From a virus: a stretch of 24,425 bases of DNA. Made by a program: the position numbers and the translations under genes. The stretch spans positions 1 through 24,425 of IMG/VR virus record IMGVR_UViG_3300025151_003787. The stretch is one strand, 5' to 3'. The notes below the pieces were generated by a model, which was not told the origin of the DNA, ran no database searches, and saw nothing but the letters and a program-made list of their open reading frames with translations. Each line of letters starts with the position of its first letter. Position 1 is the first letter of the stretch. Positions 1 to 24,425 of the stretch are shown piece by piece.

Positions 1-84
1 TAAGTTAGTCGCCGTAACACCATGCCGGGTACCTGTTAAATATATGGTCTTACTCTCAGCGTTGAGATATGCTATCCTATTTTT

Positions 85-684
85 ATGGTTTATAAAGATA
101 CTAATAAAAAACCTACAGCTGCAAAGCGTTTGAGTATGCTTACACCGGATGGGTTGAGGAGAAGGGTCTTAGATGCTATCCCTACATGGGAGAAGTGGCA
201 CAGAGTATTACGACAAGTGGCTGTCTTGTTACCTACGCATGGCGATATAGATGCGATTGCTGAGGCTTTGGAGATGACATCTGACTCTTTAGAGAAGTTG
301 ATTAAGAAAAACCCCGATTTTGAAAAATTTTTGGAGGCTTACGCCTCTACTGGTGAATACCCTGTACAAGAAAGCAAGGGGGTTATATTAAAACATAGTC
401 ATCTTGTAGAACAGTTAGCCAACGAGTCTAGTGTTATTGCGTTAATCAAATTAGAAAGAAGTAATAAGTCTAACTTAGACCAGAAGATTGTAGAGGATGC
501 CGGTTGGTACCTTAACATTAAGCATGATTCCGAAAAGTATAAACAGTTCGTTGACCACAACACTACTAAGTATAGAGAAAAGATAGAGTATAAAGCAGCA
601 CAGGCTAAGAGTAGCTCTAACGGTAGTGGCTTACAACACTTTAAGCAAACTATAGACCCAGAGGAACTAGCTCCTGTTGAATAA
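85..684 (+). CDS. putative terminase small subunit
   Basis: A 199-aa protein directly upstream of, and overlapping, the large terminase. That position is typical of the small subunit, which recognises phage DNA and hands it to the packaging motor. Residues about 52-80 (around DIDAIAEALEMTSDSL) look like a helix-turn-helix of the kind small terminases use to bind DNA. The rest is charged and helical, and the C-terminus is Ser/Gly-rich and acidic. No catalytic motif is expected or seen. The start is uncertain: the ATG at 85 lacks a clear ribosome binding site, and an in-frame ATG at 136 (residue 18) would still keep the whole helical part. Function is inferred mainly from gene order and the helix-turn-helix-like stretch, because small terminases diverge too far to recognise by sequence alone. 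Confidence 0.6.
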   Translation: MVYKDTNKKPTAAKRLSMLTPDGLRRRVLDAIPTWEKWHRVLRQVAVLLPTHGDIDAIAEALEMTSDSLEKLIKKNPDFEKFLEAYASTGEYPVQESKGVILKHSHLVEQLANESSVIALIKLERSNKSNLDQKIVEDAGWYLNIKHDSEKYKQFVDHNTTKYREKIEYKAAQAKSSSNGSGLQHFKQTIDPEELAPVE

Positions 685-2206
685 ATATACTTACATGCCT
701 ACAGAATGGCAGAAAAAACTACATGGCGTTAAGTCTAGGGTTAAATATATATGGGCTGGTCGTAGGGCTGGTAAAGGTAGAGCAGTTATTCAGGAAGCTT
801 TAAGTCTTATAGATGAAACATCTAAGAAAAAGTTTGTAGTTAATGGTGTTGATATGACTAATACCCTAGTACCCCCTATACATATATGGACAGTGGCTCC
901 TACACGGGCACAGATGAGACAGGTATGGAATGAAATGAAAGCGTTTATTCCTGAACACCTAATTAAGAAAAGAGTAGCCGGTCAAGCAGGTGGTAGAGGT
1001 TCTGGTTGGAAAGAAGATGAGATGTATGTAGAACTGGAAATGAGAGATGAATTAGGTAATTGGCTTCCGGGTACACACAGAAGAACTGTATTGTGGGAGT
1101 TAAAGTCAGCAGATAACCCTGAGTCATTACAGACTGTAGGATTAGACTTTTTACACATAGCTGAGGGTCAGGATATTAAAGAAGCTGCATGGCATAAGGT
1201 AAGACCTACTCTTAACTCTCCGGGTAGAATGGGCAGGGCTTGTATAGAAGGTATACCACCTATATCTAGGTCTCACTGGTTCTCTAGGAGGTTTCGTGCT
1301 GCAGAAAACAAACCAGACAATAATGCAGTATCTATAAGAGCAACTACATTTGATAACCACTATCTTAGTAAAGAACAGTTAGAAGATATACAAAAAGAAA
1401 AAGAACTAACTACAGAAGCTATATGGGAGAGACACTATATGGCTAAACAACCTGAGGGTGCTGGTGGGTTCTTTTCTAAAATACATGAAGCTAGTACTGG
1501 TAGAGAACAGTTAAGACCCTCTGCAGATAGACAGTATGTAGCTGGATTAGACTTAGGTAAACAAGTAGACCCTACAGTATTAATTATTAAAGATAGAGTA
1601 ACTAGAGAGTCTGTATATGCTATGGAAATGCTTAAGACAGACTGGGTACTACAGAGAGAAAGTATAGCAAAGGAATGTGAAGATTGGGGTGTGCAAGAAG
1701 TTAGAATAGATAGTTCAGGTATGGGTGGTGATGTAATCTATGATGAGCTATTAGCTATGAATGTACCGGTAGTAGCATTTAAGTTTACACCACAGTCTAA
1801 ATACCAATTATTTCTTAACTATGCTATAGCCTTACAAAATGGTACTGTGCATTTTCCTACATCTTGGGATAAACTAAAGAATCAGATGGAGGCGATAGAG
1901 GTGAAACAGTCCGGTATGGGTTATCAGTTTTCACACCCTGATAGTCCACATGATGACTGGGTAGATGCTGAATGTTTAGCATTAATGGCTTGCGACCCAG
2001 CTATGCTAGATGAAAACCAACAGCAAGTAATACCTAGCATAAGGACTTTAGAACCTTTAGGTGGTGTGTCAAATACTTCTAGAATTATTCAAAGAATAAA
2101 AAGAGAAAGAAGAAGAAAACAAATAGAGGAGCTTCAAAATACTCACCCTGATTTGGTGCTAAATGGAGTTCCGTTAACACTTGAGGAGAATGTCCAATGG
2201 CAATGA
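677..2206 (+). CDS. terL: terminase large subunit (packaging ATPase and nuclease)
   Basis: The 509-aa motor protein that pumps DNA into the prohead and cuts it. Visible motifs: a Walker A-type loop at residues 28-34 (GRRAGKG after an aromatic strand); a Walker B/catalytic region LDFLHIAEGQD at 156-166, with E163 as the likely catalytic acid; and an RNase H-fold nuclease with acidic residues at D292 (AGLDLG), D345 (VRIDSSG) and the DDWVD cluster at 426-430. Length and domain order (ATPase then nuclease) fit the family. The start used is a TTG at 677, which follows a GAGGA sequence at 661-665 and overlaps the upstream gene by 8 bases. An in-frame ATG at 695 is a realistic alternative and would remove six residues. 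The 3' end overlaps the portal gene by 10 bases, so the two are probably translated together. Confidence 0.93.
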   Translation: MNKYTYMPTEWQKKLHGVKSRVKYIWAGRRAGKGRAVIQEALSLIDETSKKKFVVNGVDMTNTLVPPIHIWTVAPTRAQMRQVWNEMKAFIPEHLIKKRVAGQAGGRGSGWKEDEMYVELEMRDELGNWLPGTHRRTVLWELKSADNPESLQTVGLDFLHIAEGQDIKEAAWHKVRPTLNSPGRMGRACIEGIPPISRSHWFSRRFRAAENKPDNNAVSIRATTFDNHYLSKEQLEDIQKEKELTTEAIWERHYMAKQPEGAGGFFSKIHEASTGREQLRPSADRQYVAGLDLGKQVDPTVLIIKDRVTRESVYAMEMLKTDWVLQRESIAKECEDWGVQEVRIDSSGMGGDVIYDELLAMNVPVVAFKFTPQSKYQLFLNYAIALQNGTVHFPTSWDKLKNQMEAIEVKQSGMGYQFSHPDSPHDDWVDAECLALMACDPAMLDENQQQVIPSIRTLEPLGGVSNTSRIIQRIKRERRRKQIEELQNTHPDLVLNGVPLTLEENVQWQ

Positions 2207-4101
2207 GTTATGCTGAAATGGAAAGTGCTGCAGAACAGACTGCAAATTTTTTATCTGCATCTCCAGAAGATGAACCAGAACTTACTTTACAATGGATTAG
2301 AGCACAAATGTCGCAAGAAGGAGTTATGGCTTCCTTCCGTAATTTTTATAGAAACTGCGAAGAAGCAGATGATTTTTATTTAGGTGATTTTGATTTTTCA
2401 GTACCAGAAGGTGGTAACCAAGTAAAACTAGGTACTTTCCATTCTATTATAGAAACACTTGTAGCTCATGCTAGTCCTAAGTATATAGACATAGATGTAC
2501 CACCACCGGGTCCTAGAGCTGCTGCTAGAGCAGAGCTTATAGAAAAGTTCCTACAAGGTGCTCATCACATGATTCAACAAAATACTCCTGTACAAAGAGA
2601 GATAGTAAAACATCAAGGATTGTATGGTGTTGCATGGGCAAAATACGAATTTGCTGGACATATGTGGAGTGATTTCCCAGACCAAGAAGAAGGTGAGTCA
2701 GATGCTTCATACAAGGAGAAAATACAGCAAATCATTACTGACAGAAAATTTAATTTCCCAATAATTGCTGAGGTTGTGAATCCTCAAGAGTGTGTGTGGG
2801 ATATAGCATCTACAAATCCTAGATGGATTATAAAGTTTTGTGAGATGGATGCTTCATGGGTAAAAGCACACTTTCCAGAGTACGAAGGTAAAGTAAGTGG
2901 AACTGTAGAGTTTTTAGAAGTATGGACATCTACTCATGTAGGTTATGTAGCTGATGATAGATGGGCTATGGCACCTAGACAACACAATTACGGAAAAATA
3001 CCTTTTGTACAGTACTACCCACAAATGGGTGTAAAAACTATAGGTAGAAAGCCAGAACATCTATATAGAGGTATAGGTCATGGTAACTTTGGTATGCTTA
3101 GAGCAGAATCAAGATTAGCATCGCAGTACTTAGATATAGTCGGTAGAAATGCTTGGGCTAATATTTCATTTAGAGGACCTAGAGGTCTTACAGAAGAAGT
3201 TATGTCAGAGTATTCTCAAGAGCCGGGTGCTAGAAACTATGTACCACCTAATGTTGAAGTAGTTCCAGACCCAGTAGCAGAGGCACCACAAAGTATATTA
3301 ATAGCTATGCAAACTATAAAAGGTGCGATAGAAGCTAATACAGTTCCTAGCGTAACTAGAGGAGAAAGACCAGTAGGAGCAGCATCTGGTTATCATACTG
3401 CTGTTCTTGCAGGTATAGCTAGTTTAAACTTTAGTGCTGTAGCAAATGCAACCGAAAGAGGTATGCAGGAAGCTAACGAAATATTATTAAGGATAGTTGA
3501 AGATGTAATTATGGATGAGGTTACTGTATTTGGTAAAACAGAATCAGGTAACTTAGATGCTAAACTAAAACCTAACGACATTCGTGGACATCATGTAAGC
3601 ATAGTTAGGTTAAATAGCACTAGCCCAGAAGAACAAGAAAGAAAACTAGGTCTTTGGAGAGATACTTGGAGAACTGGTTTCGTAGATTGGGCAACAGCAT
3701 TACGAAGTGCTGGTGTATCTAACCCATTAGAAGTTATAGGTAACAGAATAGCTGAAGATTTCTTTGAAATGCCTGAAGTTAAAGGATTGTTTGCTCAGAT
3801 AGCTGCAGAGAAACTACCTCAACTATCTCAAGCTATACAAGCAGCAACAGGTACTACTACAGATAACGCTACATCTATAGCTGCTAATATATTAAATACA
3901 CAAGGTTCTACTCAATTAACTAATCCGGGTAACTTTGGTCCGGGTAATCAAGCTGCTGCAGGTGGTGGACAAGTACCTAGACCAGTAATGCCGGGTAGTT
4001 TAGAAGAAATGAATCAGGTAGGTAGACAGATAGCAGGACCTAGAAGTGGACCTAGAAGAACAGTTGGAGCAGATATGGCTCCGGGAGGTGGTAACTACTA
4101 A
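2197..4101 (+). CDS. portal protein (head-tail connector)
   Basis: A 634-aa protein forming the dodecameric ring through which DNA enters and leaves the head. It follows the large terminase directly, and its length matches portals of short-tailed phages of the T7 gp8 type (roughly 500-700 aa). Recognisable portal-like stretches include a wing/clip region with many aromatics (about residues 180-330), SRLASQYLDIVGRNAW near 305-320, and a helical segment after IRGHHVSIVRLNSTSPEEQE near 465-485. The last ~75 residues are a Gly/Pro/Gln-rich, probably disordered tail. AGGAG at 2184-2188 lies 8 bases before the ATG at 2197, which favours that start over the second ATG at 2203. The stop codon overlaps the next start as TAATG. 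All six Pro-Gly pairs use CCG, while the other prolines are CCA or CCT (see findings). Confidence 0.88.
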   Translation: MAMSYAEMESAAEQTANFLSASPEDEPELTLQWIRAQMSQEGVMASFRNFYRNCEEADDFYLGDFDFSVPEGGNQVKLGTFHSIIETLVAHASPKYIDIDVPPPGPRAAARAELIEKFLQGAHHMIQQNTPVQREIVKHQGLYGVAWAKYEFAGHMWSDFPDQEEGESDASYKEKIQQIITDRKFNFPIIAEVVNPQECVWDIASTNPRWIIKFCEMDASWVKAHFPEYEGKVSGTVEFLEVWTSTHVGYVADDRWAMAPRQHNYGKIPFVQYYPQMGVKTIGRKPEHLYRGIGHGNFGMLRAESRLASQYLDIVGRNAWANISFRGPRGLTEEVMSEYSQEPGARNYVPPNVEVVPDPVAEAPQSILIAMQTIKGAIEANTVPSVTRGERPVGAASGYHTAVLAGIASLNFSAVANATERGMQEANEILLRIVEDVIMDEVTVFGKTESGNLDAKLKPNDIRGHHVSIVRLNSTSPEEQERKLGLWRDTWRTGFVDWATALRSAGVSNPLEVIGNRIAEDFFEMPEVKGLFAQIAAEKLPQLSQAIQAATGTTTDNATSIAANILNTQGSTQLTNPGNFGPGNQAAAGGGQVPRPVMPGSLEEMNQVGRQIAGPRSGPRRTVGADMAPGGGNY

Positions 4102-4289
4102 TGGCTAAACAAAATAGCAATAGTTTAGATATAGGATTTAGTAAATTCCTAGATTATGCTACCCTAGCATTAAAGGCAGTAGATAATAGATATAAAGAAT
4201 TTGAAGTGCCAGAGGTAAAACAAAAACAGCAAAGAGTAGTGAGACCTAAACCAATAAATTTAAATAACCCATTTCAAGGAGATTTTTAA
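4101..4289 (+). CDS. small protein of unknown function downstream of portal
   Basis: A 62-aa basic protein with no family I recognise. It starts on the last base of the portal stop codon (TAATG), with a GGAGGTG-type site at 4084-4090, and ends directly before the ATG of the next gene. It begins MAKQNSNSLDIGFSKFLDYA, has a predicted helix at about residues 12-35, and ends in a Lys/Arg/Pro-rich tail. Its place between the portal and two large virion-type proteins suggests a small structural or assembly factor, but nothing in the sequence proves that. The tight coupling on both sides makes it likely to be a real gene. Confidence 0.7.
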   Translation: MAKQNSNSLDIGFSKFLDYATLALKAVDNRYKEFEVPEVKQKQQRVVRPKPINLNNPFQGDF

Positions 4290-6959
4290 ATGCCGTGGAT
4301 ACAAACAGAAGAAGGTGGATTAGTTTGGGAGCCAGAAACACAAGGTAATACTTATATGGGTGGAGTAACTAGCCCTATGTCTTCTCAAGCAACAACAACT
4401 AACCCTTATATAAGCACAGTAGCTCCTCCACCAACTCAACCTGAGTTTGATTTTGATAAATCTTATTTTGCACCAGAAGGACCAACTTCTGTAGACGAAG
4501 GTCCAAACTTAATGAGTCTTTCTGATATACCACCTAATTTAAATCAAAATATGATAACTGCTCCTAAAGGTTTAACTGATGCTGATTTACCAGTTGAATT
4601 TCAAAACGCAGAGCTTAGAAATACTATTACTCAAAATATGTTAAATTCAGCTCCAGAAGCATTTCGTTTGGCAATGATAGCTGGTGGTAAAGATTATATG
4701 AATCAAGTACCTGTTGATGAATTTATGAGAAATTATCAAAAAGATGGTATGTATAGTGATGGCTCTATAGAAACTATATTAGCTTTTGCTAATCAAATGG
4801 GAGCATCACCTGAAGACATTATAGATATCTATGCTCCGGGTGGAATGAGAGACCCACAAAGAAGGCTTTTAGATAAAGTAGCAGCAGACCCAAGTGGAAT
4901 AACTCTTAGTAGTGCAGAAAGAGCAGAATATGAATCAATAGTAGCTGCAATAAATGCAGGTACACTTTATTCTCCATATGCTCTTAACGTGCTTAATATG
5001 GAACGACCTGATTTAGGTCTTAATCCAATGGAAACTACGGTAGGTCCTGATGGAAATATGATTGGAAGTGGTTTGCCGGGAAGTCAAGTTCAAGGTTTTT
5101 CACCTGCTGAACAAATACAAGCACAAGATTATTTACGAGAAATACAAAAATATTTAACAGGTTTAACAGAGGTGGTTCCAACATTACCTACTAACTTAGC
5201 ACGAACTTATGTAGACGCAGCAGGTATACAACAACCTACCCCTGAATACCAAACAATATTAGATGCTTATCAAGGTGCACTAGCAGAACAAACTGGTAGA
5301 GAAATGCAACAAACTGAATTTGATAGAGAATTGCAACTTCAACAAAATCAGTTAGATGCTGACTCAGAAGCTTTAGCAAAAACATTAGATTCAAATAATT
5401 TTGCTGCTTACATACAAGCTTATAATAATGATAATAATATTACGCTTCAAAAGTATTTAGAAAGTAGAAATAATTCTCTTGAAAGATTTAGAATAGAACA
5501 ATCGCAACAGTTAGCAAGAATTACTGGGCAAACTGACAAAGAAATACAACAAATGATTTCTTCAGCTCAGCAATATGTAGCAGAAAGAAATGGAATTAGT
5601 GCTAGAGAAGTAGCAGATATACAAGCTGGTGTTGCAAGGCAAGTAAGTGCAGATGAAATTTCTATTGCTAGTATTCAGCAGCAAATGCAACAAGAAATTG
5701 CTAGATTAACTGGATTAGATGAAAGATATATAGCAGACCAACAAGCTGAAGCTCAAAAAAGTATAGCAGCAGACAATAGGGCTGCAGAAGAAAGAATAGC
5801 ATTAGAAAGCAGAACTGCTAACATTGCAATCGCACAAAGCACTAATACAGCAGAAACTGAAATAGCAAAAATAAGTGCAGATGCACAAATACAGATAGCA
5901 GAAGATAATAGAATATCTCAAGAAAAAGTAGCTCTAGCAAATTCATTAAATGTAGTTGCAGCAGCAGAAGCTACAGGTTTAAGTCAAGAAAAAGTTGCAC
6001 AGATTCAAGGAGATTATAATAAAGCAGTAGCAGAAGCCACTGGATTGTCAGCACAAGAAGTTGCAAAAATACAAGGATTATCTCAAGAGCAAATAGCTAA
6101 AATTAAAGCAGCATCTGAAGTTCAAGTAGCTCAACAAGCAGCTCAAGCACAAACAGGTGCAGCTCAGTTAGGAGCAGCAGAACAAAGATTTGCAACTACT
6201 ACACAAGCAGGAACAGAAAGAGCTATTGCACAATTACAAGCTGATACACAAACAAGAATAGCTCAAATACAATCTGATACTAGCAGAGACCAAGCAGCAA
6301 AAAATTTAGAAATAGCAACTGTTCAACAACAAGCTCAGGAAGCTATAGCAAGAATACAACAAGAAGGACAATTAGCTATTGCTCAACAACAGACTAATCC
6401 GTTTGGGTTATCTGCTGAAGAATATATGGCTATGCAAACTGCTCCGGGTGCAGTAAGTCCTGCAGATACATTAAGTACTGAGCAATATATAGATTTACAA
6501 AACTCACTTGCTAGAGGTGGTTTAAGTCCAGCACAACAAATTCAATTATATGAAGCACAGCAACAAGCACAAGCAAGTGCTCAAAGAGGAGGATTAACTC
6601 CACAAGACTTTATTAGTTTGCAAGAATCTGTAGCAAGAGGTGGTCTTACACCTGAGCAAAGATTAGCTGAACAACAACAAGGTCAATCAGTACAAGCATT
6701 AACTGCATTATTAACATTATTATCTAACCCTAGTGCTTTAGGTGCACTATCTACACTATCATCAGGTCAGACACCATTTGGTGGTGCAATACCTAGTGCA
6801 GCAGCATTACAGGGTAGGTCAAATGAGTTCTTAAACTTCTTACAAGGAGCTTTTGGAGCAGCAGGTGTAACTCCTTCTGCTTTAGTTAATTTAATACAAG
6901 GAGTAACTCCAGCAGGAGTATCTAATCCATTTGGAGCATTAACTGGTCAGGTGGCGTAA
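4290..6959 (+). CDS. Gln/Ala-rich coiled-coil virion protein, possible internal or ejection protein
   Basis: An 889-aa protein in three parts. Residues 1-330 are mixed and Pro/Asn-rich. Residues about 330-702 form one long, nearly uninterrupted heptad-like helix rich in Ala, Gln and Glu, with recurring units such as EVAxIQ, QEKVAQIQ, EQIAKIK and TRIAQIQ. Residues about 703-889 are a low-complexity tail with three copies of an RGGL(S/T)P motif (near residues 741, 765 and 783) and a Gly/Ala/Pro-rich end. No enzyme motif is seen. AAGGAGAT at 4276-4283 gives a strong ribosome binding site. Long coiled coils next to a giant protein recall the ejected internal virion proteins of short-tailed phages (T7 gp14-gp16), which build a channel across the cell envelope. 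The assignment rests on composition and context. A tape-measure role is less likely because no long-tail genes are present. Confidence 0.6.
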   Translation: MPWIQTEEGGLVWEPETQGNTYMGGVTSPMSSQATTTNPYISTVAPPPTQPEFDFDKSYFAPEGPTSVDEGPNLMSLSDIPPNLNQNMITAPKGLTDADLPVEFQNAELRNTITQNMLNSAPEAFRLAMIAGGKDYMNQVPVDEFMRNYQKDGMYSDGSIETILAFANQMGASPEDIIDIYAPGGMRDPQRRLLDKVAADPSGITLSSAERAEYESIVAAINAGTLYSPYALNVLNMERPDLGLNPMETTVGPDGNMIGSGLPGSQVQGFSPAEQIQAQDYLREIQKYLTGLTEVVPTLPTNLARTYVDAAGIQQPTPEYQTILDAYQGALAEQTGREMQQTEFDRELQLQQNQLDADSEALAKTLDSNNFAAYIQAYNNDNNITLQKYLESRNNSLERFRIEQSQQLARITGQTDKEIQQMISSAQQYVAERNGISAREVADIQAGVARQVSADEISIASIQQQMQQEIARLTGLDERYIADQQAEAQKSIAADNRAAEERIALESRTANIAIAQSTNTAETEIAKISADAQIQIAEDNRISQEKVALANSLNVVAAAEATGLSQEKVAQIQGDYNKAVAEATGLSAQEVAKIQGLSQEQIAKIKAASEVQVAQQAAQAQTGAAQLGAAEQRFATTTQAGTERAIAQLQADTQTRIAQIQSDTSRDQAAKNLEIATVQQQAQEAIARIQQEGQLAIAQQQTNPFGLSAEEYMAMQTAPGAVSPADTLSTEQYIDLQNSLARGGLSPAQQIQLYEAQQQAQASAQRGGLTPQDFISLQESVARGGLTPEQRLAEQQQGQSVQALTALLTLLSNPSALGALSTLSSGQTPFGGAIPSAAALQGRSNEFLNFLQGAFGAAGVTPSALVNLIQGVTPAGVSNPFGALTGQVA
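6522..6660 (+). repeat. three-copy RGGL(S/T)P motif in coiled-coil protein
   Basis: Within the C-terminal part of the coiled-coil virion protein, the hexapeptide RGGLSP or RGGLTP occurs three times at irregular spacing. Each copy is followed by a short Gln-rich helix (PAQQIQL, PQDFISL, PEQRLAE). The codons differ between copies (AGA-GGT-GGT, AGA-GGA-GGA, AGA-GGT-GGT), so the repetition is kept at protein level and is not a fresh DNA duplication. Confidence 0.65.
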
Positions 6960-9900
6960 TGGTATCGCCATTTAGAAATCCTTTTGATAATGAACCTACT
7001 GAAAGAAGTAGCAGATGGTCTTTTTTTAAGACTAAACAACAACAGATAAAAGACAGAAGGGATGCCCAAAGAAGACAAGCTCTTGCTAATCAACAAGCAG
7101 TATTTCAAAGACAAAATTTTACTCCTACACCTATACAAGATATAAATGTTGATAATTTATTTGAAGGTGCACAATCTGAAGCACTTATAGCTCAGGCAAA
7201 TGCAAATAACCCTAATCCTGCACTTAGAGAAGAAAGTAAAGGTTGGTTTAGTACATTAATGCAAAAATGGGATGATAAAACTGTAGAATTTGCAGGTAGT
7301 TCGTTAAATCCTTTTAATGCAGTAATTAACTTATATAATCCTTCTGCTGCTAGACAAATAGAATTGAAAAAAATGCGATATAAAAAAGAATATATTGCAT
7401 CTGGTCTAACAGATAAAGAAGCTGGAAGAAAAGCACAAAGAGCTGCTTGGAGAGAAACAGATATATCTCAAGTTAAAATAGCTGGAAAAACTATAGACCC
7501 AATTAAGTTTATGGGTGAAGTTGTTTCTGACCCTACTAACTTAGTATTTTTTGGTGCAGGTACTGCTTTAAAAGCTGCAGTAAAAGGTGGTGCAGCAATA
7601 GGTAGAAAACAATTAAAACTAACTGGTGCTAAGTTTGCAGATACAGGTAAAACAAAGACAGGCAATATTAAAGATATGGTATTAGAAGATGAGCTTATAA
7701 CTAATCCCGGTTTTTATTGGCAAAAACAAGCAGCTAGTGAATTAGATAAAACCTTTTTTCAAGGAGGAACTTTTGCACAACAAACTGCTGCTAGAAAAAC
7801 ATTTAGAAAATATTTATATGAACCTGAAAAATTAACTGAAAAAAACCTAAGAGATATTTATAACGACACAACAATATCTAATGCTTTAAGTAGATATAAA
7901 GCAGGAGAAATAAGTACAGAATCTTATGCAAGAAAAATGACTTATGAAAAATTTGAAGAATTATACAAAGCACCGATAGTTAAAACTAATAAACAATTTT
8001 TATCAAATCCTAAGTCAGACTATCAATATTTAGCTTTACAGGGTACAGCAGACAGTGCTGATTACATAACAGATTTAAAAGCTATGGGTTATGCTCTTGC
8101 TAATACTAAATCAAAACTAATGGCACCTTTAAGATTTGGCTGGAAATATATTGACCCTGCACCTTTTCAAGTAAACTCAAAATTAGGTAGAGCTTTATTA
8201 ATACATGGTGCTAGAGAAAACGATAACAAAGTTTTAGTAGCTAATGCAGTTAGAAAACAAAAAGAACAATGGAAAAAATTAAGTTTAGGTGATGATATAG
8301 ACCTTAATAATTTGCCAGAAGAAGGAGCATTTGAAGCTTTAATAAATCCTAAATACGATTTTGCAGCAAATGGAAAAAATAAAGAAGCATTAGATTATTG
8401 GGGTACTTTTTTAGAAGAAGCTTTTGATGACACTGGTAAGTTAGCACCTCATATAAGAGCAACTAAAGCACAAGAAGAAGGGCTTAGGAAGATTCTTGAT
8501 GGATGGGGAGAACACGCAACACATTTAGTAGAAAATGGAGTTTATAGTCCTCAGCAAATGGGTCTTGCTGTAAAAACAGCAAAAGATGGAAGTCTTTATT
8601 ATGAACAAGATTTATTGCAAAGTGGAAGACGTTATGTAGGTCATATAGTTGAATCTATGGGTGATAGAGAATTAAGAAATCCTGTAGTTAATTTTACTAG
8701 AGCTTCTGGAGAAAGACCAAGAAAATATGCAAGTGATTTTACAAATGCTTTAGATGATGAAATTGCAGAATTAACAAGAGACCAAGCAAGAGAAATGGGT
8801 ATTAAATACCTTAATAATCCTATATCTGTTTACGACATAAAAAGTGGTGAAATAATGGATAGAATAAATGATGTTGCTTTTATTAACAGAATGAAAATAC
8901 TTGGAGATAAAAGATTCCAAACAAGTGATAGTTATCTTGCTGTAAAGAAAAAAATAGCAGACGTAGAAGATACTTTTAATAGTATTGTAAAAACAATAGA
9001 AGAAACATCTTTTAATCCAAAAGCAACAGGTAAAAAAACTTTTCTAGCAGCCGGAGTAAATGAATTTGGAACAGAGCTTAAAACTATTTTACAAAACGTA
9101 GATGCTGATATAGCACCTGAAATAGAAGGCGTAACTAAAAAAATGTTAGAAGTTTTAGATGGTCCAATGAATCAAAGAGCTAGACAGTTAGAAAATGTTG
9201 AAAACGAATTAGCAACTGTAATAACCAAGATGGATGAAGAAGGAGCTATTATTTCAGAGCTAAGAAGAACATTAAATAAAGGTTTGCCTGCTTTACCACC
9301 AATAGATTTAGAAAAATCTACTAGGTCAAGAATAAAAACAGTATTAGGTGGTGCATCTCATAAAATAATGGAAGGAAAAGGAGAATTTGATGTTAATACT
9401 TTACTTAATATAAGAAACCAAAAAATACTAGAAGATGTTGTAGGTTCTGCAAAAATTGATGCTAATTACCCAATAAGAGGTAAAGATATAGGAACTCCTA
9501 TTTCTGCAAGAAAAATTGTATTACCAAAAAATATTGATGAGCTAAGACAATTAAGAAAAGACTTAAAAAATGTTCAACAAAAAATGGTAATGAGAAATTA
9601 CTCAAAAGCTGTAATAGCTAATGTTAATGAAACAGAAAGAACAGTATTTAGATTAATAAAAGAACATAACGCTACATCAAAATTAAAAGTTAACAGAAAA
9701 GAATTAGACCCGATAAAAGATGTGTTAAATAAACTAGACGAATTGCAATTAGACAATCCTTTAGTAGTGCAAAAAATTAATAATCAAGATTTATTTAAAA
9801 ATCTAAATGATTTGGTAAGAGGATATACCAATTTAAAAAGTAGAAGAATAGCAGATAAATTTAAACAACAATTAATTAGAGAAAGTAAGATTGTAGTAAA

Positions 9901-12814
9901 CACATTAGATGATTCTATTAGAACTAAAAATGAACTAGCTGAAAAATTAATTGATGCAGTTGGTTCAATAAACAATAACCCAGAATTAGCAAAAAAATAT
10001 TTTGGAAATTATTTTACTAAAAAAGGCACATTTAGACAGTCTGTTATGAAAGATATTGATACGCATTTTCCAGCAATATCAGATATATTAGTAAAGTTCC
10101 AACAAGACCCTCAATACTTAAATGATTATAAAAAAGGATTAATAAGTTTACAAAATGATTTATTGCCTATAGTAAAACAAACACTAGCTAAACATCACGA
10201 AGACCTTAGTAAAATAAAATTAAGTTATTACAAAAGAAAAGACCCAGAAGGTATTAGAAAAACTTCATTGTTTGGAAAACAAATATCTGGAATAGAAGAA
10301 ACACAACGATTAAAAGATGCTAATTTAACTAATGTTAATTTAAGAAATGGTATACCTACAAAAGAATTAGAAAATTATTTGTTTAGTAATGCAGATAAAA
10401 CACGAATAGAAAAATTCTTTGGTCAAAAACAAGGACAGGGATTTGCTGGTAAATTTGGAGCATTACTTGAAACTGCTGGAACTGTAGGAGATATTATTAG
10501 ATTAATGAAAGTAGGTTATGACTTAGGTGCTCCGTTAATTCAAGGTTTACCATTGTTAGTTACAAATCCTGCAGGTTGGGGTAAAGCGTCATGGTATCAC
10601 TATAGAACATTTGCTCAAAGCAAAGAAGCAGTAGCTGGTTATTTTGCTAAAAACTCTCATGTAATAGATGAAATGATAGAGTCTGGTGTAGAAATATCAG
10701 GTGAAGGATTAGATTATTATAGTGCATTTAAAGATGGAACATTGTTTAATCAAGTATTAGAAGGTACAGATAAGCAAATAGCAAAAATACCAATATTAGG
10801 AAGAATAGTAGATAAAAATGCAGGTTTATCTGGCATTACCAGTAGATTTAATGATGCTTTTGATGTTTTTGGAGATATAGCAAGAATAGAAATGTATCAA
10901 GCATTAAAAAATGTAGCTATTAAAAAAAGCATAGGTGGTGGTGTTATAAGACGTACAACAACTGAAAGTGCTGTACCTGATGGCACAGATTTAGGCATGA
11001 TGCAATTAGCTGATACTGTAAACAAAATGACAGGTGTTTTTAATTCAAGAGCTAGAGGAGCTAATAGGTCTACTATGGCTTTTGATAGGTCATGGGCATT
11101 CTTTTCTCCTAGATATACAAGAGCAAGTACAGCATTAATAGCTGATGCTTTAATAGGTGGAGGTAGTAATGTTACTGGTTATGCTGCAAGGCAAACTTTA
11201 TTTAGAATGCTTAATGCAGGTATGATAGCTTATGTAGGTCAGGTACAGTTACGAAGAATGATGGAAGAAGAAGCAGGTGTGCCTGAAGAACAAAGAACAA
11301 AAGCTTATTTAGACCCTAGACCTGTAGCTGAAGGTGGAGATGGTGGTAAATTTATGAAAATAAGAATAGGAAGTGAAGGCAGAGAAAGCTATGTGGGTAT
11401 AGGTGGTTTTTGGACTGGTTTCTTAAAACTTGCTTCTAATATAGCACTTGACCCAGCTTTTAGAGGAGATAAATCAGATTCTCCATTATTTATGACAGAT
11501 GAAGTAGGTAAAGGCACTACAGCTAGTTTACTTAGTAATCCTATAATTCAGTGGCTTAGAGGTAGGCAACCTCCTACTTCTGGTTTAATGTGGGATTTAA
11601 GTTTAGGTCATGACTTCATAGGTAATCCTTTAGAAACTAAAACAGATTGGGGTAAACATTTAGGTAAACAAGCTGTTCCGTTTTGGGTAGAACATGGATT
11701 TATGACTGGAGACGAAAATAAATGGGATAGACCAGCAGGTATGTTTGCTGAATTAAGTGGTTTTCAAGCAAATGAAGTTTCAGACTGGCAGAACTTACAA
11801 GACTTAAAAGATGAGTTAGCTATGAAACATCATGGAGTTATGTGGGATGATTTACCTATATTACAGCAAGAAGAAATTAAAATGGCTACAGTTGGAAGCT
11901 CTGATGATATTCAAGTTATAGAAGATAAAATATATGATGAAAGAAAACAATATCCATTAGGAGACAAAGCTCAAAAAGTTATGCCTGAGTGGTTTAGGAT
12001 TATAGATGATATACAAGCAGACTTTGACGAAAAAGCTGTAGAAATAGATTCTGCTTTAGATAATAACGAAATAGATGTGGCTATGTATGTAAAGCATATG
12101 AATGCTATAAGCAGAGAAAAAAGGTTATCACAACAACAACTTAAACAAGAAGAAAGATTTAAACCTTTATATAAAAACTTTGAATATCAAACTATAGACC
12201 AAAAAACAGGTGTTGCTGATTACTTTTTTAATGAATATATGAATTTAATATCAGATAGTGCTCAGTTTTCTTTATTGCCTCAAAATTTACAAGATATAGG
12301 TCTTATGGATTCTGACATGATAGATTGGGATGCAAAAGCACAAGCTATAGCTAATTTTGAAGATAGAGTTGGACCACAAGTAATGGAATATATAAATAAA
12401 CGAATGAATACTAAACCAAGAGTAGGTGATGTTCCACACCCTGTATACGAAGAATACTTAAGAGGTAGAGAAAAGTATCTAAATGATTACTATCAAAGGG
12501 TAGAACAAGAAGCTTTAGCTTTAAGAGGTGATGAAGCAATAGAACAATGGAATAGTTACAAAAAATCATCATATCCTGTTAGAGAAGAAATAGAAAGAGG
12601 CAGCCCTCTTATTAAACAGATTTTGCGTGATATTAATAAAGCTAGACAACTACTTAGAAAAAATAACCCAGACTTAGATGCTTTTCTATATAGATTTAAT
12701 GTAGGTGGAACTACTACCCTACTACATAGTTATAATAAGTCAGACTATAGAAAAGGTGAACTAGCTCAACCGTTTCCTATGGAAAGATACACTCCCGGCT
12801 TTACAACAGATTAA
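6959..12814 (+). CDS. giant 1951-aa virion protein, possible DNA-ejection protein
   Basis: The largest gene, nearly a quarter of the window. It starts on the stop codon of the coiled-coil gene (TAATG), with AGGTGG at 6949-6954. The N-terminus (residues 1-60) is basic and Gln-rich. A segment near 190-215 reads GEVVSDPTNLVFFGAG and then Ala/Gly-rich, amphipathic or membrane-active in character. Residues about 620-1140 are long charged helices, likely coiled coil. Residues about 1175-1215 are hydrophobic (LIQGLPLLVTNPAGWG). Residues about 1360-1530 are aromatic and Gly-rich, similar in feel to the modules of large polyvalent phage proteins. No lytic transglycosylase (present at the N-terminus of T7 gp16), polymerase or protease motif was found. 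Size, helix content and pairing with the coiled-coil gene point to an internal virion protein ejected into the host. This is inference, not recognition of a family. Confidence 0.6.
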   Translation: MVSPFRNPFDNEPTERSSRWSFFKTKQQQIKDRRDAQRRQALANQQAVFQRQNFTPTPIQDINVDNLFEGAQSEALIAQANANNPNPALREESKGWFSTLMQKWDDKTVEFAGSSLNPFNAVINLYNPSAARQIELKKMRYKKEYIASGLTDKEAGRKAQRAAWRETDISQVKIAGKTIDPIKFMGEVVSDPTNLVFFGAGTALKAAVKGGAAIGRKQLKLTGAKFADTGKTKTGNIKDMVLEDELITNPGFYWQKQAASELDKTFFQGGTFAQQTAARKTFRKYLYEPEKLTEKNLRDIYNDTTISNALSRYKAGEISTESYARKMTYEKFEELYKAPIVKTNKQFLSNPKSDYQYLALQGTADSADYITDLKAMGYALANTKSKLMAPLRFGWKYIDPAPFQVNSKLGRALLIHGARENDNKVLVANAVRKQKEQWKKLSLGDDIDLNNLPEEGAFEALINPKYDFAANGKNKEALDYWGTFLEEAFDDTGKLAPHIRATKAQEEGLRKILDGWGEHATHLVENGVYSPQQMGLAVKTAKDGSLYYEQDLLQSGRRYVGHIVESMGDRELRNPVVNFTRASGERPRKYASDFTNALDDEIAELTRDQAREMGIKYLNNPISVYDIKSGEIMDRINDVAFINRMKILGDKRFQTSDSYLAVKKKIADVEDTFNSIVKTIEETSFNPKATGKKTFLAAGVNEFGTELKTILQNVDADIAPEIEGVTKKMLEVLDGPMNQRARQLENVENELATVITKMDEEGAIISELRRTLNKGLPALPPIDLEKSTRSRIKTVLGGASHKIMEGKGEFDVNTLLNIRNQKILEDVVGSAKIDANYPIRGKDIGTPISARKIVLPKNIDELRQLRKDLKNVQQKMVMRNYSKAVIANVNETERTVFRLIKEHNATSKLKVNRKELDPIKDVLNKLDELQLDNPLVVQKINNQDLFKNLNDLVRGYTNLKSRRIADKFKQQLIRESKIVVNTLDDSIRTKNELAEKLIDAVGSINNNPELAKKYFGNYFTKKGTFRQSVMKDIDTHFPAISDILVKFQQDPQYLNDYKKGLISLQNDLLPIVKQTLAKHHEDLSKIKLSYYKRKDPEGIRKTSLFGKQISGIEETQRLKDANLTNVNLRNGIPTKELENYLFSNADKTRIEKFFGQKQGQGFAGKFGALLETAGTVGDIIRLMKVGYDLGAPLIQGLPLLVTNPAGWGKASWYHYRTFAQSKEAVAGYFAKNSHVIDEMIESGVEISGEGLDYYSAFKDGTLFNQVLEGTDKQIAKIPILGRIVDKNAGLSGITSRFNDAFDVFGDIARIEMYQALKNVAIKKSIGGGVIRRTTTESAVPDGTDLGMMQLADTVNKMTGVFNSRARGANRSTMAFDRSWAFFSPRYTRASTALIADALIGGGSNVTGYAARQTLFRMLNAGMIAYVGQVQLRRMMEEEAGVPEEQRTKAYLDPRPVAEGGDGGKFMKIRIGSEGRESYVGIGGFWTGFLKLASNIALDPAFRGDKSDSPLFMTDEVGKGTTASLLSNPIIQWLRGRQPPTSGLMWDLSLGHDFIGNPLETKTDWGKHLGKQAVPFWVEHGFMTGDENKWDRPAGMFAELSGFQANEVSDWQNLQDLKDELAMKHHGVMWDDLPILQQEEIKMATVGSSDDIQVIEDKIYDERKQYPLGDKAQKVMPEWFRIIDDIQADFDEKAVEIDSALDNNEIDVAMYVKHMNAISREKRLSQQQLKQEERFKPLYKNFEYQTIDQKTGVADYFFNEYMNLISDSAQFSLLPQNLQDIGLMDSDMIDWDAKAQAIANFEDRVGPQVMEYINKRMNTKPRVGDVPHPVYEEYLRGREKYLNDYYQRVEQEALALRGDEAIEQWNSYKKSSYPVREEIERGSPLIKQILRDINKARQLLRKNNPDLDAFLYRFNVGGTTTLLHSYNKSDYRKGELAQPFPMERYTPGFTTD

Positions 12815-13642: not shown

Positions 13643-13654
13643 AAAGGATAAATA

Positions 13655-14560
13655 ATGGCTACAGGATTGACGCTATCAGACTCATCAAGTCTGGAGGACA
13701 TGAGTGCCATAATGATAGCTAACGCTATCGCTAATATTGAACCTGCTGGACCAACAAACCAGTTAGTAACTCGTTATGATATTCCTAAAGGGGTAAAACA
13801 AATTAATGTTCCTCTATGGGGTAGAAACGATGCTGCTGCTTTGACAGAAGGTGTAGATATTTCTGTTCCACAACAACTTGGTGTAACTGTAAGAAACCTA
13901 ACTGCTACAGAACATGGTTTACTTACTTTTGTATCAGACAAGCTTGTGAGACAGAATAACGAATCAGTTATGGCTCATGTCGGAGAAGTTCAAGGAAACG
14001 CTGTTGGAAGATTGCTAGAAAGCGATTTAATAACATTGTTTGACGGATTCTCAGTTTCAGCACCGGGTGCAGGAAACGCTGGTACTTTTTACCACGTTGC
14101 AGGTGCTGTTTCATACTTAAAAACAGATAATAACTCATCTTTCGGACCAGCTCCGGGCACACCTAATGGTGTATTCCACCCAGAGCAAATCAGAAGATTT
14201 GTACAAGAATCTACATCTATTCAAGGTGGTGGTTCAACTGGTATGGCTGCACAGCCTATTCCAGAAGGATACTCTGCCGAAGTACTTAGAAACTACTACA
14301 GAGGTAATGAACAGATATTTAACGTACCTATTTATGAATCTGGTGTAATTTCTAGGGATGGCTCTGGAGATTCAAAAGGTGCTATTTTCGCAAGAGAAGC
14401 ACTAGCACTAGCTATGGAAACTGAAATCAGTGCTGAAGAAGAAAGAGACATTTCATTAAGAGGAACTGAAGTTGTAACCACAGGTAACTGGGGTGAACTT
14501 GAGATTGTTGATACTTGGGGTGTTGAATTCTATTCTGCAACTGACGCAGCTTTCAGTTAA
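13655..14560 (+). CDS. major capsid protein candidate (HK97-like)
   Basis: A 301-aa protein right after the scaffold, with a strong ribosome binding site (AAAGGA at 13643-13648, 6 bases before ATG). It has features expected of an HK97-fold coat. The N-terminal arm is polar and helical (MATGLTLSDSSSLEDMSAIM). An extended strand (VKQINVPLWGR) leads to an E-loop-like region with TEGVDISVPQQLGVTVRNLT, then a spine-helix-like stretch (VMAHVGEVQGNAVGRLLESD). A Gly/Pro-rich P-domain follows, and the C-terminal part returns to strands (EVVTTGNWGELEIVDTWGVE). There is no protease or delta domain; its role fits a shell built with a separate scaffold. The gene uses more C-ending codons (TTC, AAC, TAC) than its neighbours, as expected for the most abundant virion protein. 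I infer the family from order, length and strand pattern. Confidence 0.8.
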   Translation: MATGLTLSDSSSLEDMSAIMIANAIANIEPAGPTNQLVTRYDIPKGVKQINVPLWGRNDAAALTEGVDISVPQQLGVTVRNLTATEHGLLTFVSDKLVRQNNESVMAHVGEVQGNAVGRLLESDLITLFDGFSVSAPGAGNAGTFYHVAGAVSYLKTDNNSSFGPAPGTPNGVFHPEQIRRFVQESTSIQGGGSTGMAAQPIPEGYSAEVLRNYYRGNEQIFNVPIYESGVISRDGSGDSKGAIFAREALALAMETEISAEEERDISLRGTEVVTTGNWGELEIVDTWGVEFYSATDAAFS

Positions 14561-14567
14561 GGAATAA

Positions 14568-15392: not shown

Positions 15393-15397
15393 ATACT

Positions 15398-15742
15398 ATG
15401 ACAGCAGGTACTAGACAATACGAAAGTGTTAATTCTACTACTACTACTATGTCGGGTAATGCAGACATGACTATCACTGCAGCTAGTGACAAGTTACAAA
15501 TTGTTGACCCCGGAGGTAGTGCTAGGAACTTAGACCTTATTTTTGTTGATGCTTCTGAGACTGGTGTAACAACTGGTTTCGCTGAAGTGTACATACAGAA
15601 TGAGGCTGATGCAGATGAAGCACTTACTATTAGAGATGGAAACAACTCTGATAATGCTATTGGTGTTCTTGACCAGAACGCTGGTGGATGGTTCAAATTT
15701 GTTGCAGGACAATGGGTGTCTTCAACATCTGGACTTAACTAA
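15398..15742 (+). CDS. beta-rich head decoration-like protein
   Basis: A 114-aa protein starting at ATG 15398, 10 bases after GGAG (15384-15387). It is Thr/Ser/Asp/Gly-rich with alternating strands and no long helix: TITAASDKLQIVDPGGSARN, DLIFVDASETGVTTGFAEVYI, then a C-terminal WFKFVAGQWVSS. The pattern (a metal- or Gly-rich turn, then paired strands ending in a Trp-x-W hairpin) resembles small capsid-surface or tail-spike head domains of marine phages. I cannot place it in a named family. No membrane segment is present. It is followed by the largest intergenic gap in the window, so it may end a transcription or translation block. Confidence 0.65.
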   Translation: MTAGTRQYESVNSTTTTMSGNADMTITAASDKLQIVDPGGSARNLDLIFVDASETGVTTGFAEVYIQNEADADEALTIRDGNNSDNAIGVLDQNAGGWFKFVAGQWVSSTSGLN

Positions 15743-15754
15743 AAATTGAATAAT

Positions 15755-15844: not shown

Positions 15845-15865
15845 TAATATATATAGGAGAACAAT

Positions 15866-16165
15866 ATGTCATCAGGACACGAAAAATTAGCTGTTGATGC
15901 TACTGTAAGAACATTACAGTCTGTTCCAGCTGCATCTAATTATGCAGCAGGTAAATGTGAAACAGCTTCAATTAGATTTAGAACAGACGGCACAGACCCA
16001 GCAACTGCTACAGGTGTGCTAATTAAAGCAGATGAAAACTTTAGAATTTACGGTAATGATGTTTTAAATCAAATTAAATTTGTTGAAGCTACAAGCACAG
16101 ATGCTGTTATTAATGTATCTTATGGTATTGATAATAGTGGAAAACACGGCGTAGAAGTCGGTTAG
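15866..16165 (+). CDS. small virion decoration-like protein
   Basis: A 99-aa protein with AGGAGA at 15855-15860 ahead of its ATG. The sequence reads as a single small beta sandwich: HEKLAVDATVRTLQSVPAA, CETASIRFRTDGTDPATATG, ENFRIYGNDVLNQIKFVEATSTDAVINVSYGI. The order of a short apolar strand, an RFR-x-DGTDP turn, then IKF-x-x-A/T-x-S-x-DAVINVSY is one I associate with small structural proteins common in marine phage genomes. They sit between head and tail genes and are thought to decorate the capsid or support fibres. The name is therefore by resemblance and position. It is separated by one base from the next gene. Confidence 0.65.
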   Translation: MSSGHEKLAVDATVRTLQSVPAASNYAAGKCETASIRFRTDGTDPATATGVLIKADENFRIYGNDVLNQIKFVEATSTDAVINVSYGIDNSGKHGVEVG

Positions 16166-16166
16166 T

Positions 16167-16625
16167 ATGTCAAACAAATCTAGCGACAAAAATATATTTA
16201 AATCAAAACAGGAAGTAACTTGGGTTGATACAGTCATTGAAAAAGATGGTGTAAAGAAACAAGTTTTTATTCCTGACACTCATGATGCTTATGGAGATAA
16301 AAAATCTGTAAAACAAATTACTGAGGATTTTGTAGGTAAACACAGTGATAATCAGACTGCTGTTAAAGCAGGAGAAGATGCTCAAAGGCAATTAGAAGAA
16401 ACTGATTTTAATTCTGTTATTAAAAAAATAAGAGAAGATAAATGGAAGTCTCAAAATAAAATGATGGACATGATGGTTCATACTGATAAAACAACTGGAG
16501 AAACTACAGGAGCAACTATTACTTTTATGACTACAAATAGTGATGGACTAAGCTACCCTAGAAATGTACACTTAGACCAAACCGAAATACAAAAGGTAAT
16601 AGAAAGAACAAATGGAGGTAGCTAG
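16167..16625 (+). CDS. hypothetical charged protein between head and neck genes
   Basis: A 152-aa polar protein rich in Lys, Asp, Thr and Gln, without transmembrane segments or recognisable motifs. It begins MSNKSSDKNIFKSKQEVTW and has a middle segment with alternating charges (residues about 45-95, likely helical) and a Met-rich short stretch (KMMDMMVH near 100). It starts one base after the previous stop with only a weak ribosome binding site, so translation may depend on coupling. Its stop codon overlaps the GTG start of the next gene (TAGTG), and its last codons hold that gene's GGAGGT. It could be a head-tail joining or assembly factor, but nothing visible fixes the function. Confidence 0.65.
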   Translation: MSNKSSDKNIFKSKQEVTWVDTVIEKDGVKKQVFIPDTHDAYGDKKSVKQITEDFVGKHSDNQTAVKAGEDAQRQLEETDFNSVIKKIREDKWKSQNKMMDMMVHTDKTTGETTGATITFMTTNSDGLSYPRNVHLDQTEIQKVIERTNGGS

Positions 16626-22991: not shown

Positions 22992-24382
22992 TGGCTAATC
23001 AAGTAAACAAATTAAATGCAATAGCAATAGGAAGCATAGCAAAAGTTAATGGCTTAACAGATGCTAACATTGAAAAAATAAATGGGTTAGAGTTTACTGG
23101 CACAATAGACATATCAGTAGTTACTGGTTACACACAAGTAGCAACTGCTGGTAGCTATAGTTGCAATATGACATACGATGAAGATAATAACTATGTATAT
23201 GTACAATATCCTAGAAATGGTGGTGGTGGAGCAGCAGTTGTAGGTGCATTTAATTCTACTGACCAAGATATAGATTTTGGTTCTGAACAAACTATAGAGT
23301 CATCTAACGCATTTTCTGGTAACTCTTGTGATTACGATAAGGTTAACGACAGAGTGTGGACTACTTGGATTGGTGGTAGTGGTAATGTTCTTTATGCAAG
23401 ATGTGGACAAATTAATTCTGATAAAAGCATTACTTGGGGTGATACATTAACTGTGCAAGATGGTTACAATTCACTAAATAGATATAATCAAGGTTTATTG
23501 CAACAAGGATTAGCAGTAGACCAAAACACAGGTAAATGTTTGATTGTTTGGAATAGTGCTGCAGATACAGTTGGCGACAATGCAAGTAACCATCACATGA
23601 CTGGAGTTATATTAACAATAGATGACCCAAGTGCATCAAGTAGTGATAGCGATTTCTGTGATATATCAGCAGGAAGCCAATCTAGAATTGCAACAAGTGA
23701 GAATGGTCAGTTTGGTATGATTAAATGTCATTACGACCCTGATAATCAAGAATGGGTAGCAATAGTAGATAATAGTGGTGGTACTGATGGCATATTTGCT
23801 TGTAGAGTTACTGATAATTCGGGAACACCAGCAGTAGCAAACATGACACAATTACTTAATAATTCTGGGCATACATTGCAAGGTTCAAATGGTCATAATG
23901 CAAGTAAAGGTGCAACTGGTGGTAGACATGGTGGTCATCATTTTATATATGATACGAGTTCTGACCACTTTATAGTTGGTAGTGCAACTGAAGATGGCAG
24001 CACTACACCAAAACTATTTGCATTTGAAAATACTGGTAGTGCTATAAATTGGGATGAAACTGGTATTGCAGTAAGTCATGGAGTTACTATAAGTCAAAGT
24101 GGTAAAGGTGGAACTATAGTATACAGTCATGCTAGAGGTAGATTTGCTACACATGGTCAAGATGGCGATGAAAAGTTAGAAATATTTAGTTATAATGGTT
24201 CAAGTTTTACAAGCCACAACTCTAGTAGTTTAATTACCATAAGCACAGATGATGACCCTTTTTACAGAGGTGGTGCATCAATGCAAGATATGTCAGCTTT
24301 TGCTAATGGTGCAGTAATGATTGTTGGTACTGATTACGATAGCCGACATCCTTACTACATTCTTTTGGAAATGGGTGGTTAG
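22991..24382 (+). CDS. beta-propeller structural protein, probably tail-associated
   Basis: A 463-aa protein starting on the fibre stop codon (TAATG). Its N-terminus (NKLNAIAIGSIAKVNGLTD, then IEKINGLEF) matches a short lead sequence I associate with marine phage tail proteins. The body contains repeated blade-like strands with a Y/V-D start and a hydrophobic second strand: YDEDNNYVYV (near residue 61), YDKVNDRVWTTW (114), VDQNTGKCLIVW (176), YDPDNQEWVAI (247), YDTSSDHFIVG (320) and YSHARGRFATHG (378). The spacing of 53-73 residues suggests six or seven propeller blades. A His/Gly-rich loop (GGRHGGHHF) precedes the fifth. No hydrolase motif is visible. It may be a receptor-binding or fibre-tip protein. 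Confidence 0.62.
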   Translation: MANQVNKLNAIAIGSIAKVNGLTDANIEKINGLEFTGTIDISVVTGYTQVATAGSYSCNMTYDEDNNYVYVQYPRNGGGGAAVVGAFNSTDQDIDFGSEQTIESSNAFSGNSCDYDKVNDRVWTTWIGGSGNVLYARCGQINSDKSITWGDTLTVQDGYNSLNRYNQGLLQQGLAVDQNTGKCLIVWNSAADTVGDNASNHHMTGVILTIDDPSASSSDSDFCDISAGSQSRIATSENGQFGMIKCHYDPDNQEWVAIVDNSGGTDGIFACRVTDNSGTPAVANMTQLLNNSGHTLQGSNGHNASKGATGGRHGGHHFIYDTSSDHFIVGSATEDGSTTPKLFAFENTGSAINWDETGIAVSHGVTISQSGKGGTIVYSHARGRFATHGQDGDEKLEIFSYNGSSFTSHNSSSLITISTDDDPFYRGGASMQDMSAFANGAVMIVGTDYDSRHPYYILLEMGG

Positions 24383-24383
24383 T

Positions 24384-24425
24384 ATGGCTAAAATAATAAA
24401 AAGAAAATCAGACAATTTAGTAATA
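24384..24425 (+). CDS. partial CDS, cut by the window end
   Basis: An ATG one base after the stop of the propeller gene opens a frame that runs to the window end: MAKIIKRKSDNLVI, 14 codons. The same one-base spacing is seen at 16165/16167, which supports it as a real gene start. It has a basic N-terminus. The rest is outside the window, so no function can be given. Confidence 0.55.
   Translation, partial: MAKIIKRKSDNLVI

What the first reader, a model, noticed from the sequence alone, without database searches (positions are those of the whole stretch)
1..24425. CCWGG is absent while CCSGG occurs 17 times; Pro-Gly codon choice is forced
No CCAGG or CCTGG was found on scanning every CC dinucleotide. 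CCSGG occurs at 25, 1067, 1220, 2506, 3223, 3925, 3940, 3991, 4081, 4836, 5076, 6444, 7706, 12794, 14063, 14153 and 15509. All 16 Pro-Gly pairs in the proteins use CCG or CCC, codons otherwise rare here. In the portal gene all six Pro-Gly prolines are CCG and the others are CCA/CCT. An AT-rich genome would be expected to do the opposite. CCWGG is the Dcm/EcoRII-type motif, so this points to restriction avoidance at W specifically, with S tolerated.
Basis: seen in the sequence. Interest (0 to 1): 0.75.

Follow-up and report, generated by a model that had tools for sequence, protein, structure and literature searches.

The report
Phages forced to choose restriction-site avoidance
This marine phage has removed every CCWGG site (and every GATC site) from its DNA, while near relatives have removed CCGG instead; because any Pro-Gly pair must be written with one or the other, each relative found avoids exactly one of the two, a sign that host cutting enzymes force a choice.

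Summary
It is not chance (0 of 1000 synonymous shuffles; null mean 17). It is also incomplete: GATC is absent more strongly (0 against 64), as are GGCC, TCGA and GCGC.

Among 46 contigs of this uncultivated phage family, 19 avoid CCWGG and 27 avoid CCGG. None avoids both and none avoids neither. The state flipped about eight times on the capsid tree; the nearest opposite relative has a 98% identical capsid protein. Flips are mostly synonymous swaps at the centre base, not C-to-T decay. No phage gene follows the state.

Best reading: host Type II restriction systems, in two alternative kinds, select against one site or the other. Pro-Gly is always CCN-GGN, so it contains CCWGG or CCGG, and no phage can escape both synonymously. 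Some Pelagibacter phages escape both by almost dropping Pro-Gly, Gly-Pro and sometimes Ala-Ala from their proteomes. Host and enzymes are unidentified.

The parts
1..24425 (.). whole contig: no CCWGG, GATC, GGCC, TCGA or GCGC
677..2206 (+). terminase large subunit; 2 Pro-Gly, both CCG
   Evidence: Pfam Terminase_3/Terminase_6C, PHROG terminase; codons
2197..4101 (+). 634-aa protein at the portal position (no database match); 6 Pro-Gly all CCG, 34 other Pro all CCA/CCT
   Evidence: portal role by position only
4290..6959 (+). 889-aa virion-region protein; 3 Pro-Gly all CCG
6959..12814 (+). 1951-aa protein; 2 Pro-Gly, both CCC
13655..14560 (+). major capsid protein; 2 Pro-Gly, both CCG; used for the family tree
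   Evidence: 30-33% identical to annotated capsid proteins of Pelagibacter phages; weak Phage_capsid_4 match
15398..15742 (+). 114-aa protein whose only proline precedes Gly and is CCC
25..29 (.). CCGGG outside the called genes
1067..1071 (+). CCGGG, Pro-Gly codon pair
1220..1224 (+). CCGGG, Pro-Gly codon pair
2506..2510 (+). CCGGG, Pro-Gly codon pair
3223..3227 (+). CCGGG, Pro-Gly codon pair
3925..3929 (+). CCGGG, Pro-Gly codon pair
3940..3944 (+). CCGGG, Pro-Gly codon pair
3991..3995 (+). CCGGG, Pro-Gly codon pair
4081..4085 (+). CCGGG, Pro-Gly codon pair
4836..4840 (+). CCGGG, Pro-Gly codon pair
5076..5080 (+). CCGGG, Pro-Gly codon pair
6444..6448 (+). CCGGG, Pro-Gly codon pair
7706..7710 (+). 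CCCGG, Pro-Gly codon pair
12794..12798 (+). CCCGG, Pro-Gly codon pair
14063..14067 (+). CCGGG, Pro-Gly codon pair
14153..14157 (+). CCGGG, Pro-Gly codon pair
15509..15513 (+). CCCGG, Pro-Gly codon pair

Best explanation
The window comes from a marine tailed phage whose genome has been purged by selection of the recognition sites of host Type II restriction enzymes: GATC, CCWGG, GGCC, and probably TCGA and GCGC. Its relatives meet one of two alternative restriction activities on the CCNGG axis, one cutting CCWGG and the other cutting CCGG (which includes CCSGG). Every Pro-Gly pair is CCN-GGN, so it must contain CCWGG (N = A/T) or CCGG (N = C/G). Synonymous change can remove one site class but never both, so each lineage sits in one of two reciprocal states and moves between them by swapping the third base of proline codons before glycine. 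Shown: the absences, the exact reciprocity in 46 contigs, repeated switching, synonymous replacement at Pro-Gly, no avoidance of the other class outside Pro-Gly, and no phage gene that tracks the state. Inferred: that the agents are host restriction enzymes, and that hosts carry the two specificities as alternatives.
For: (1) 46 of 46 contigs fall cleanly into one state, 19 W-avoiders and 27 S-avoiders, with no intermediate label. (2) Against a synonymous-codon null, W-type: CCWGG 1/375, CCSGG outside Pro-Gly 35/40; S-type: CCSGG 2/83, other CCGG 13/247, CCWGG 678/625. Pro-Gly is 300/301 CCS in W and 533/535 CCW in S, while Pro elsewhere is about 88-90% CCW in both. (3) Capsid tree: 8 state changes, at least 4 forced by well-supported branches; window and G008 are opposite with 98% identical capsid. 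(4) Of 1145 aligned CCWGG sites from S to W phages 1 is kept, against 2070/3246 between S phages; of 1351 CCGG sites from W to S, 9 are kept, against 1026/1443 between W phages. (5) 73% of single changes at CCWGG are at the central base, and Pro-Gly itself is about as conserved S-to-W as S-to-S. (6) All avoided sites are palindromes matching known orthodox Type II specificities (HpaII, EcoRII/MvaI, MboI, HaeIII, HhaI; named from knowledge), the class that phages are known to avoid (PMC6286503). (7) Both states occur in the same metagenome, e.g. 3300030090, 3300029448, 3300029319 and 3300030406.
Against: No host is known and no restriction enzyme was observed; scans of 84,980 genomes with the terminase and capsid found no integrated relative. 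GATC, GGCC and GCGC avoidance vary separately, so a simple two-host picture is too simple. W-types show a partial deficit of CCGG outside CCSGG (121/272). In low-GC clade 1 the expected number of CCGG is small, so those S labels rest mainly on pooled counts and on CCWGG being present. The four G009-G012 S-type genomes keep 3-6 CCGG, nearly all outside CCSGG.
Confidence: 0.8

Rival explanations
1. Methylation-driven decay: hosts methylate C in CCWGG (or CCGG) and deamination turns the sites into CTWGG or similar, without restriction.
For: C-5 methylation at these sites is common in bacteria (from knowledge); inner C>T makes up 14% of single changes at CCWGG.
Against: C>T at the inner base is the same 13-14% in the S-S control, and 73% of changes are at the central base, which deamination does not touch. 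GATC is lost mostly through A>G or A>T on either strand. Counts go to zero, which mutation without selection would not maintain.
Confidence: 0.04
2. Codon or tRNA preference: CCG/CCC is favoured before Gly for translational reasons.
For: The bias is seen in codon pairs.
Against: CCWGG is also absent in frames 1 and 2 (0/124); sister phages with the same proteins use the opposite codons; the same zero pattern holds for unrelated tetramers.
Confidence: 0.02
3. The phage itself carries a nuclease that destroys host DNA at CCWGG/GATC (or CCGG), and its own genome is cleared to be immune.
For: Viruses with such nucleases are known for other hosts (from knowledge). G006 carries a 174-aa protein that by eye resembles a PD-(D/E)XK nuclease.
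Against: No gene cluster is restricted to and shared across either state in 46 contigs, including several of 35-42 kb. The G006 gene is in one genome only.
Confidence: 0.06
4. Two (or more) separate host species, each with its own fixed set of enzymes, rather than alternative alleles in one host population; the reciprocity on CCNGG reflects host jumps. This is a variant of the best explanation, not an exclusive alternative.
For: GATC, GGCC and CCWGG avoidance often go together; about 8 changes on the tree.
Against: Four samples hold both states; sub-lineages differ in only one axis (L081-L083 against L079/L080/L095 share GATC and GCGC status but differ on CCNGG).
Confidence: 0.35

Closest known systems
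Recognition-site avoidance by non-temperate dsDNA phages against orthodox Type II systems (Rusinov et al. 2018, PMC6286503)
   Same: Near-complete loss of short palindromic Type II sites across the genome.
   Different: Here close relatives avoid complementary sites, and the choice is imposed by a dipeptide; the words synonymous and amino acid do not occur in that paper's main text.
Taboo-free sequence space (PMC7560954)
   Same: Treats restriction sites as forbidden words and asks which sequences can reach each other.
   Different: The term codon does not occur there; here protein coding makes {CCWGG, CCGG} jointly unavoidable wherever Pro-Gly is kept.
EcoRII/MvaI/PspGI (CCWGG) and HpaII/MspI (CCGG) restriction systems (from knowledge)
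   Same: Site classes match the two avoided sets.
   Different: No such enzyme was found; the sets are inferred from absence only.

Membership tests
Type II restriction-site avoidance | Site depleted far below composition and codon expectation, in all frames | tested here: met
Type II restriction-site avoidance | Avoided words are palindromic recognition sites of known orthodox Type II enzymes | tested here: met
   palindrome ranking; enzyme names from knowledge
Type II restriction-site avoidance | Depletion by selection rather than by a mutational route such as deamination | tested here: met
   substitution spectrum with same-state controls
Type II restriction-site avoidance | Host encodes the cognate restriction enzyme | not testable with these tools
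   host unknown; no integrated relative in genome contigs
Type II restriction-site avoidance | Non-temperate lifestyle | tested here: inconclusive
   no prophage copy found in 84,980 genomes, and no integrase among the proteins scanned; not every gene was scanned
Dcm/EcoRII-type (CCWGG) pressure only | CCWGG is the sole avoided site | tested here: not met
   GATC 0/64, GGCC, TCGA, GCGC also absent

The most novel reading that the evidence does not exclude
Pairs of restriction specificities that together cover every codon spelling of a dipeptide (CCWGG + CCGG for Pro-Gly; GGWCC + GGCC for Gly-Pro; GCNGC for Ala-Ala) cannot be jointly evaded by silent mutation. Host populations holding such pairs split phages into reciprocal types, or force them to drop the dipeptide from the whole proteome, as HTVC026P-like Pelagibacter phages appear to have done.
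Probability: 0.55. Interest if true: 0.85.

Novelty: new variant of a known kind. Interest (0 to 1): 0.72.

Why it matters
Restriction-site avoidance is usually treated as a silent change of a phage genome. Here it has a hard limit set by the genetic code: two host enzymes can make a dipeptide impossible to encode safely. That gives a concrete reason for phages to be locked into host types, a natural set of sister phages with reciprocal states and repeated switching in which to study how a genome with dozens of sites is cleared, and a testable link between restriction and protein sequence. It also lets sequence alone predict which restriction specificities an uncultured host population carries.

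Tried and rejected
Deamination, codon preference, chance and a phage-borne agent were tested and rejected or disfavoured. Host identification failed: no prophage or host contig through terminase or capsid, no tRNA genes in the 20 loci scanned, and the nearest isolate capsids are only about 30% identical. The idea that phage methyltransferases mark one state is suggestive only: they occur in 5 of 27 S-type and 0 of 19 W-type contigs, Fisher p about 0.06-0.07, and their specificity could not be read from sequence. Clustered GATC leftovers in G002, L069 and L074, which would suggest recombination, were not seen; the sites are spread out. The first ORF called at the methyltransferase locus of G005 was a wrong frame and was corrected.

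Full report
Observation. In the 24,425-base window CCAGG and CCTGG do not occur and CCSGG occurs 17 times, at exactly the positions given. All 16 Pro-Gly pairs use CCG or CCC, while 249 of 266 other prolines use CCA or CCT. Permuting synonymous codons among the window's own genes gives 17.3 CCWGG on average and never fewer than 11 in 1000 trials; it also gives 64.5 GATC, 18.3 TCGA, 13.1 GCGC and 8.5 GGCC, all of which are 0 in the window. Aspartate before a codon starting with C is GAC 50 times out of 50, although GAT is otherwise preferred 414 to 82.

Relatives. The window is a fragment of an uncultivated marine tailed phage. Among its proteins that were compared, only the terminase and capsid have clear database relatives, and the nearest isolates by capsid are Pelagibacter phages at about 30% identity. 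Terminase and capsid scans of IMG/VR gave 45 further contigs of the same family, many of 20-42 kb. The first eight already showed that some relatives have GATC and CCWGG but no CCGG. Over the whole set, 19 contigs avoid CCWGG and keep CCSGG; 27 avoid CCGG (hence CCSGG) and keep CCWGG; none does both or neither.

Counts against a codon null. In the 19 W-avoiders CCWGG is 1 against 375 expected; in frames 1 and 2 alone it is 0 against 124. CCSGG outside Pro-Gly is 35 against 40, so these phages do not avoid it. In the 27 S-avoiders CCSGG is 2 against 83, other CCGG is 13 against 247, and CCWGG is 678 against 625. Pro-Gly is spelled CCS in 300 of 301 cases in W-avoiders and CCW in 533 of 535 in S-avoiders; proline elsewhere is about 88-90% CCW in both.

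Switching. On the terminase tree at least two changes of state are needed; on the capsid tree with 40 contigs eight changes, at least four of them forced by strongly supported branches. The window and G008 have 98% identical capsid proteins and opposite states. Contigs of both states come from the same metagenomes. GATC, GGCC and GCGC avoidance are further axes that partly vary independently: L070 and L081-L083 avoid CCWGG but keep GATC and GGCC; G006 and G007 keep GCGC.

How the change is made. In aligned S-to-W comparisons 1 of 1145 CCWGG sites is kept, against 2070 of 3246 between S phages; 73% of single changes are at the central base, and the inner C>T fraction (14%) equals that of the control (13%). 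In W-to-S comparisons 9 of 1351 CCGG sites are kept, against 1026 of 1443 between W phages. Pro-Gly itself is about as conserved across states as within them. This fits purifying selection on DNA words with the protein kept, and does not fit methylation-driven decay. The pairs of contigs are not independent, so these are counts, not significance tests.

Agent. No gene cluster among the 46 contigs is both restricted to one state and shared across its lineages, so a phage-encoded cause is unlikely. The avoided words are palindromes of common Type II specificities, the class phages avoid (PMC6286503). DNA methyltransferase genes occur in five S-type contigs (G004, G005, G008, L080, L095) and in no W-type contig, which is suggestive but not significant.

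Why exactly one. Pro-Gly is CCN GGN. With N = A or T it contains CCWGG; with N = C or G it contains CCGG. The two restriction specificities therefore cover every spelling, and a phage that keeps its Pro-Gly pairs (16 in this window) cannot escape both by silent change. This follows from the genetic code and accounts for the absence of double avoiders in this family. The absence of contigs avoiding neither needs the further inference that nearly all hosts of this family carry one or the other activity. A similar split exists at Gly-Pro: 19 contigs avoid GGCC and spell Gly-Pro through GGWCC, L079 and L080 avoid GGWCC and keep GGCC, and 25 do neither.

The third way. As a control, Pelagibacter phages with distantly related capsids were examined. 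HTVC026P, HTVC202P, HTVC111P and HTVC112P have almost no CCNGG and GGNCC. Their proteomes hold 1, 0, 1 and 3 Pro-Gly (16-19 expected) and 0, 0, 1 and 1 Gly-Pro. HTVC026P has 0 Ala-Ala against 36 expected, with 0 GCNGC in the whole genome, and HTVC111P has 3 against 40; Pro-Pro and Gly-Gly are normal. HTVC010P, on the same host strain as HTVC026P (HTCC1062), has normal numbers. In 80 metagenomic relatives Gly-Pro is 9 against 280 and Pro-Gly 74 against 280; Ala-Ala is bimodal, with contigs such as L105 at 0 against 23. CCNGG and GGNCC are also depleted in frames 1 and 2 (4/42 and 6/45), so the pressure acts on DNA. These phages appear to have paid in protein sequence what the window's family avoids paying by choosing one site class. 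Whether the agent there is restriction is inferred by analogy.

Known work. Searches of the paper library found the general rule of Type II site avoidance (PMC6286503) and a mathematical treatment of forbidden words (PMC7560954), but no account of a dipeptide-forced choice or of dipeptide loss. The library lacks most subscription journals, so priority is not established.

Limits. Host and enzymes are unknown, contigs are mostly partial, and genes were called by open reading frame. The reciprocity and the codon facts do not depend on these; the mechanism does.

Noticed in passing
L098, L100, L101, L184 (HTVC026P, 202P, 111P, 112P) and L102-L181: Pelagibacter phage proteomes nearly lack Pro-Gly and Gly-Pro, and some lack Ala-Ala entirely (HTVC026P 0 against 36), matching loss of CCNGG, GGNCC and GCNGC from the DNA.
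   Followed up: partly
window 1-24425: GATC, TCGA, GCGC and GGCC are each absent, GATC most strongly (0 against 64).
   Followed up: yes
L079, L080 against the 19 GGCC-avoiding contigs: A second complementary pair at Gly-Pro: GGWCC-avoiders keep GGCC, GGCC-avoiders use GGWCC.
   Followed up: partly
L087, L088: Besides GATC, GGCC and CCWGG, these two avoid many more palindromes (CASTG 0/68, CTSAG 0/58, AAGCTT 0/26, CTGCAG 0/21, TCGA 0/16), suggesting a host with an unusually large set of enzymes.
   Followed up: no
L069, L074, G002: GATC is partly lost (11/30, 18/64, 11/60 against the codon null), with RGATCY 0/33 in L069 and L074; either a BstYI-like specificity or a clearing in progress.
   Followed up: partly
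L185 1106-5235 (contig of L080), L027 (G005), L026 (G004), L008 187-678 (G008), L186 (contig of L095): DNA methyltransferase genes (C-5, N6/N4 and phage Dam types) only in S-type contigs; in G004 the C-5 gene sits between the gene upstream of the terminase and the terminase itself.
   Followed up: partly
G022, G005, G013, G014 just upstream of the gene that precedes the terminase: A 235-244-aa MUG113 (GIY-YIG-like) protein at the same site in both states, nearly identical across distant relatives, probably a homing nuclease.
   Followed up: no
L182 (HTVC103P) and L183 (HTVC010P): Both have CCWGG but no CCGG, i.e. the S state; HTVC103P (first 45 kb) also has no GATC.
   Followed up: no
G006, 1817-2341 in terminase orientation: A 174-aa protein that by eye resembles a PD-(D/E)XK nuclease, without a Pfam or NCBIfam match, in one W-type genome.
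   Followed up: no
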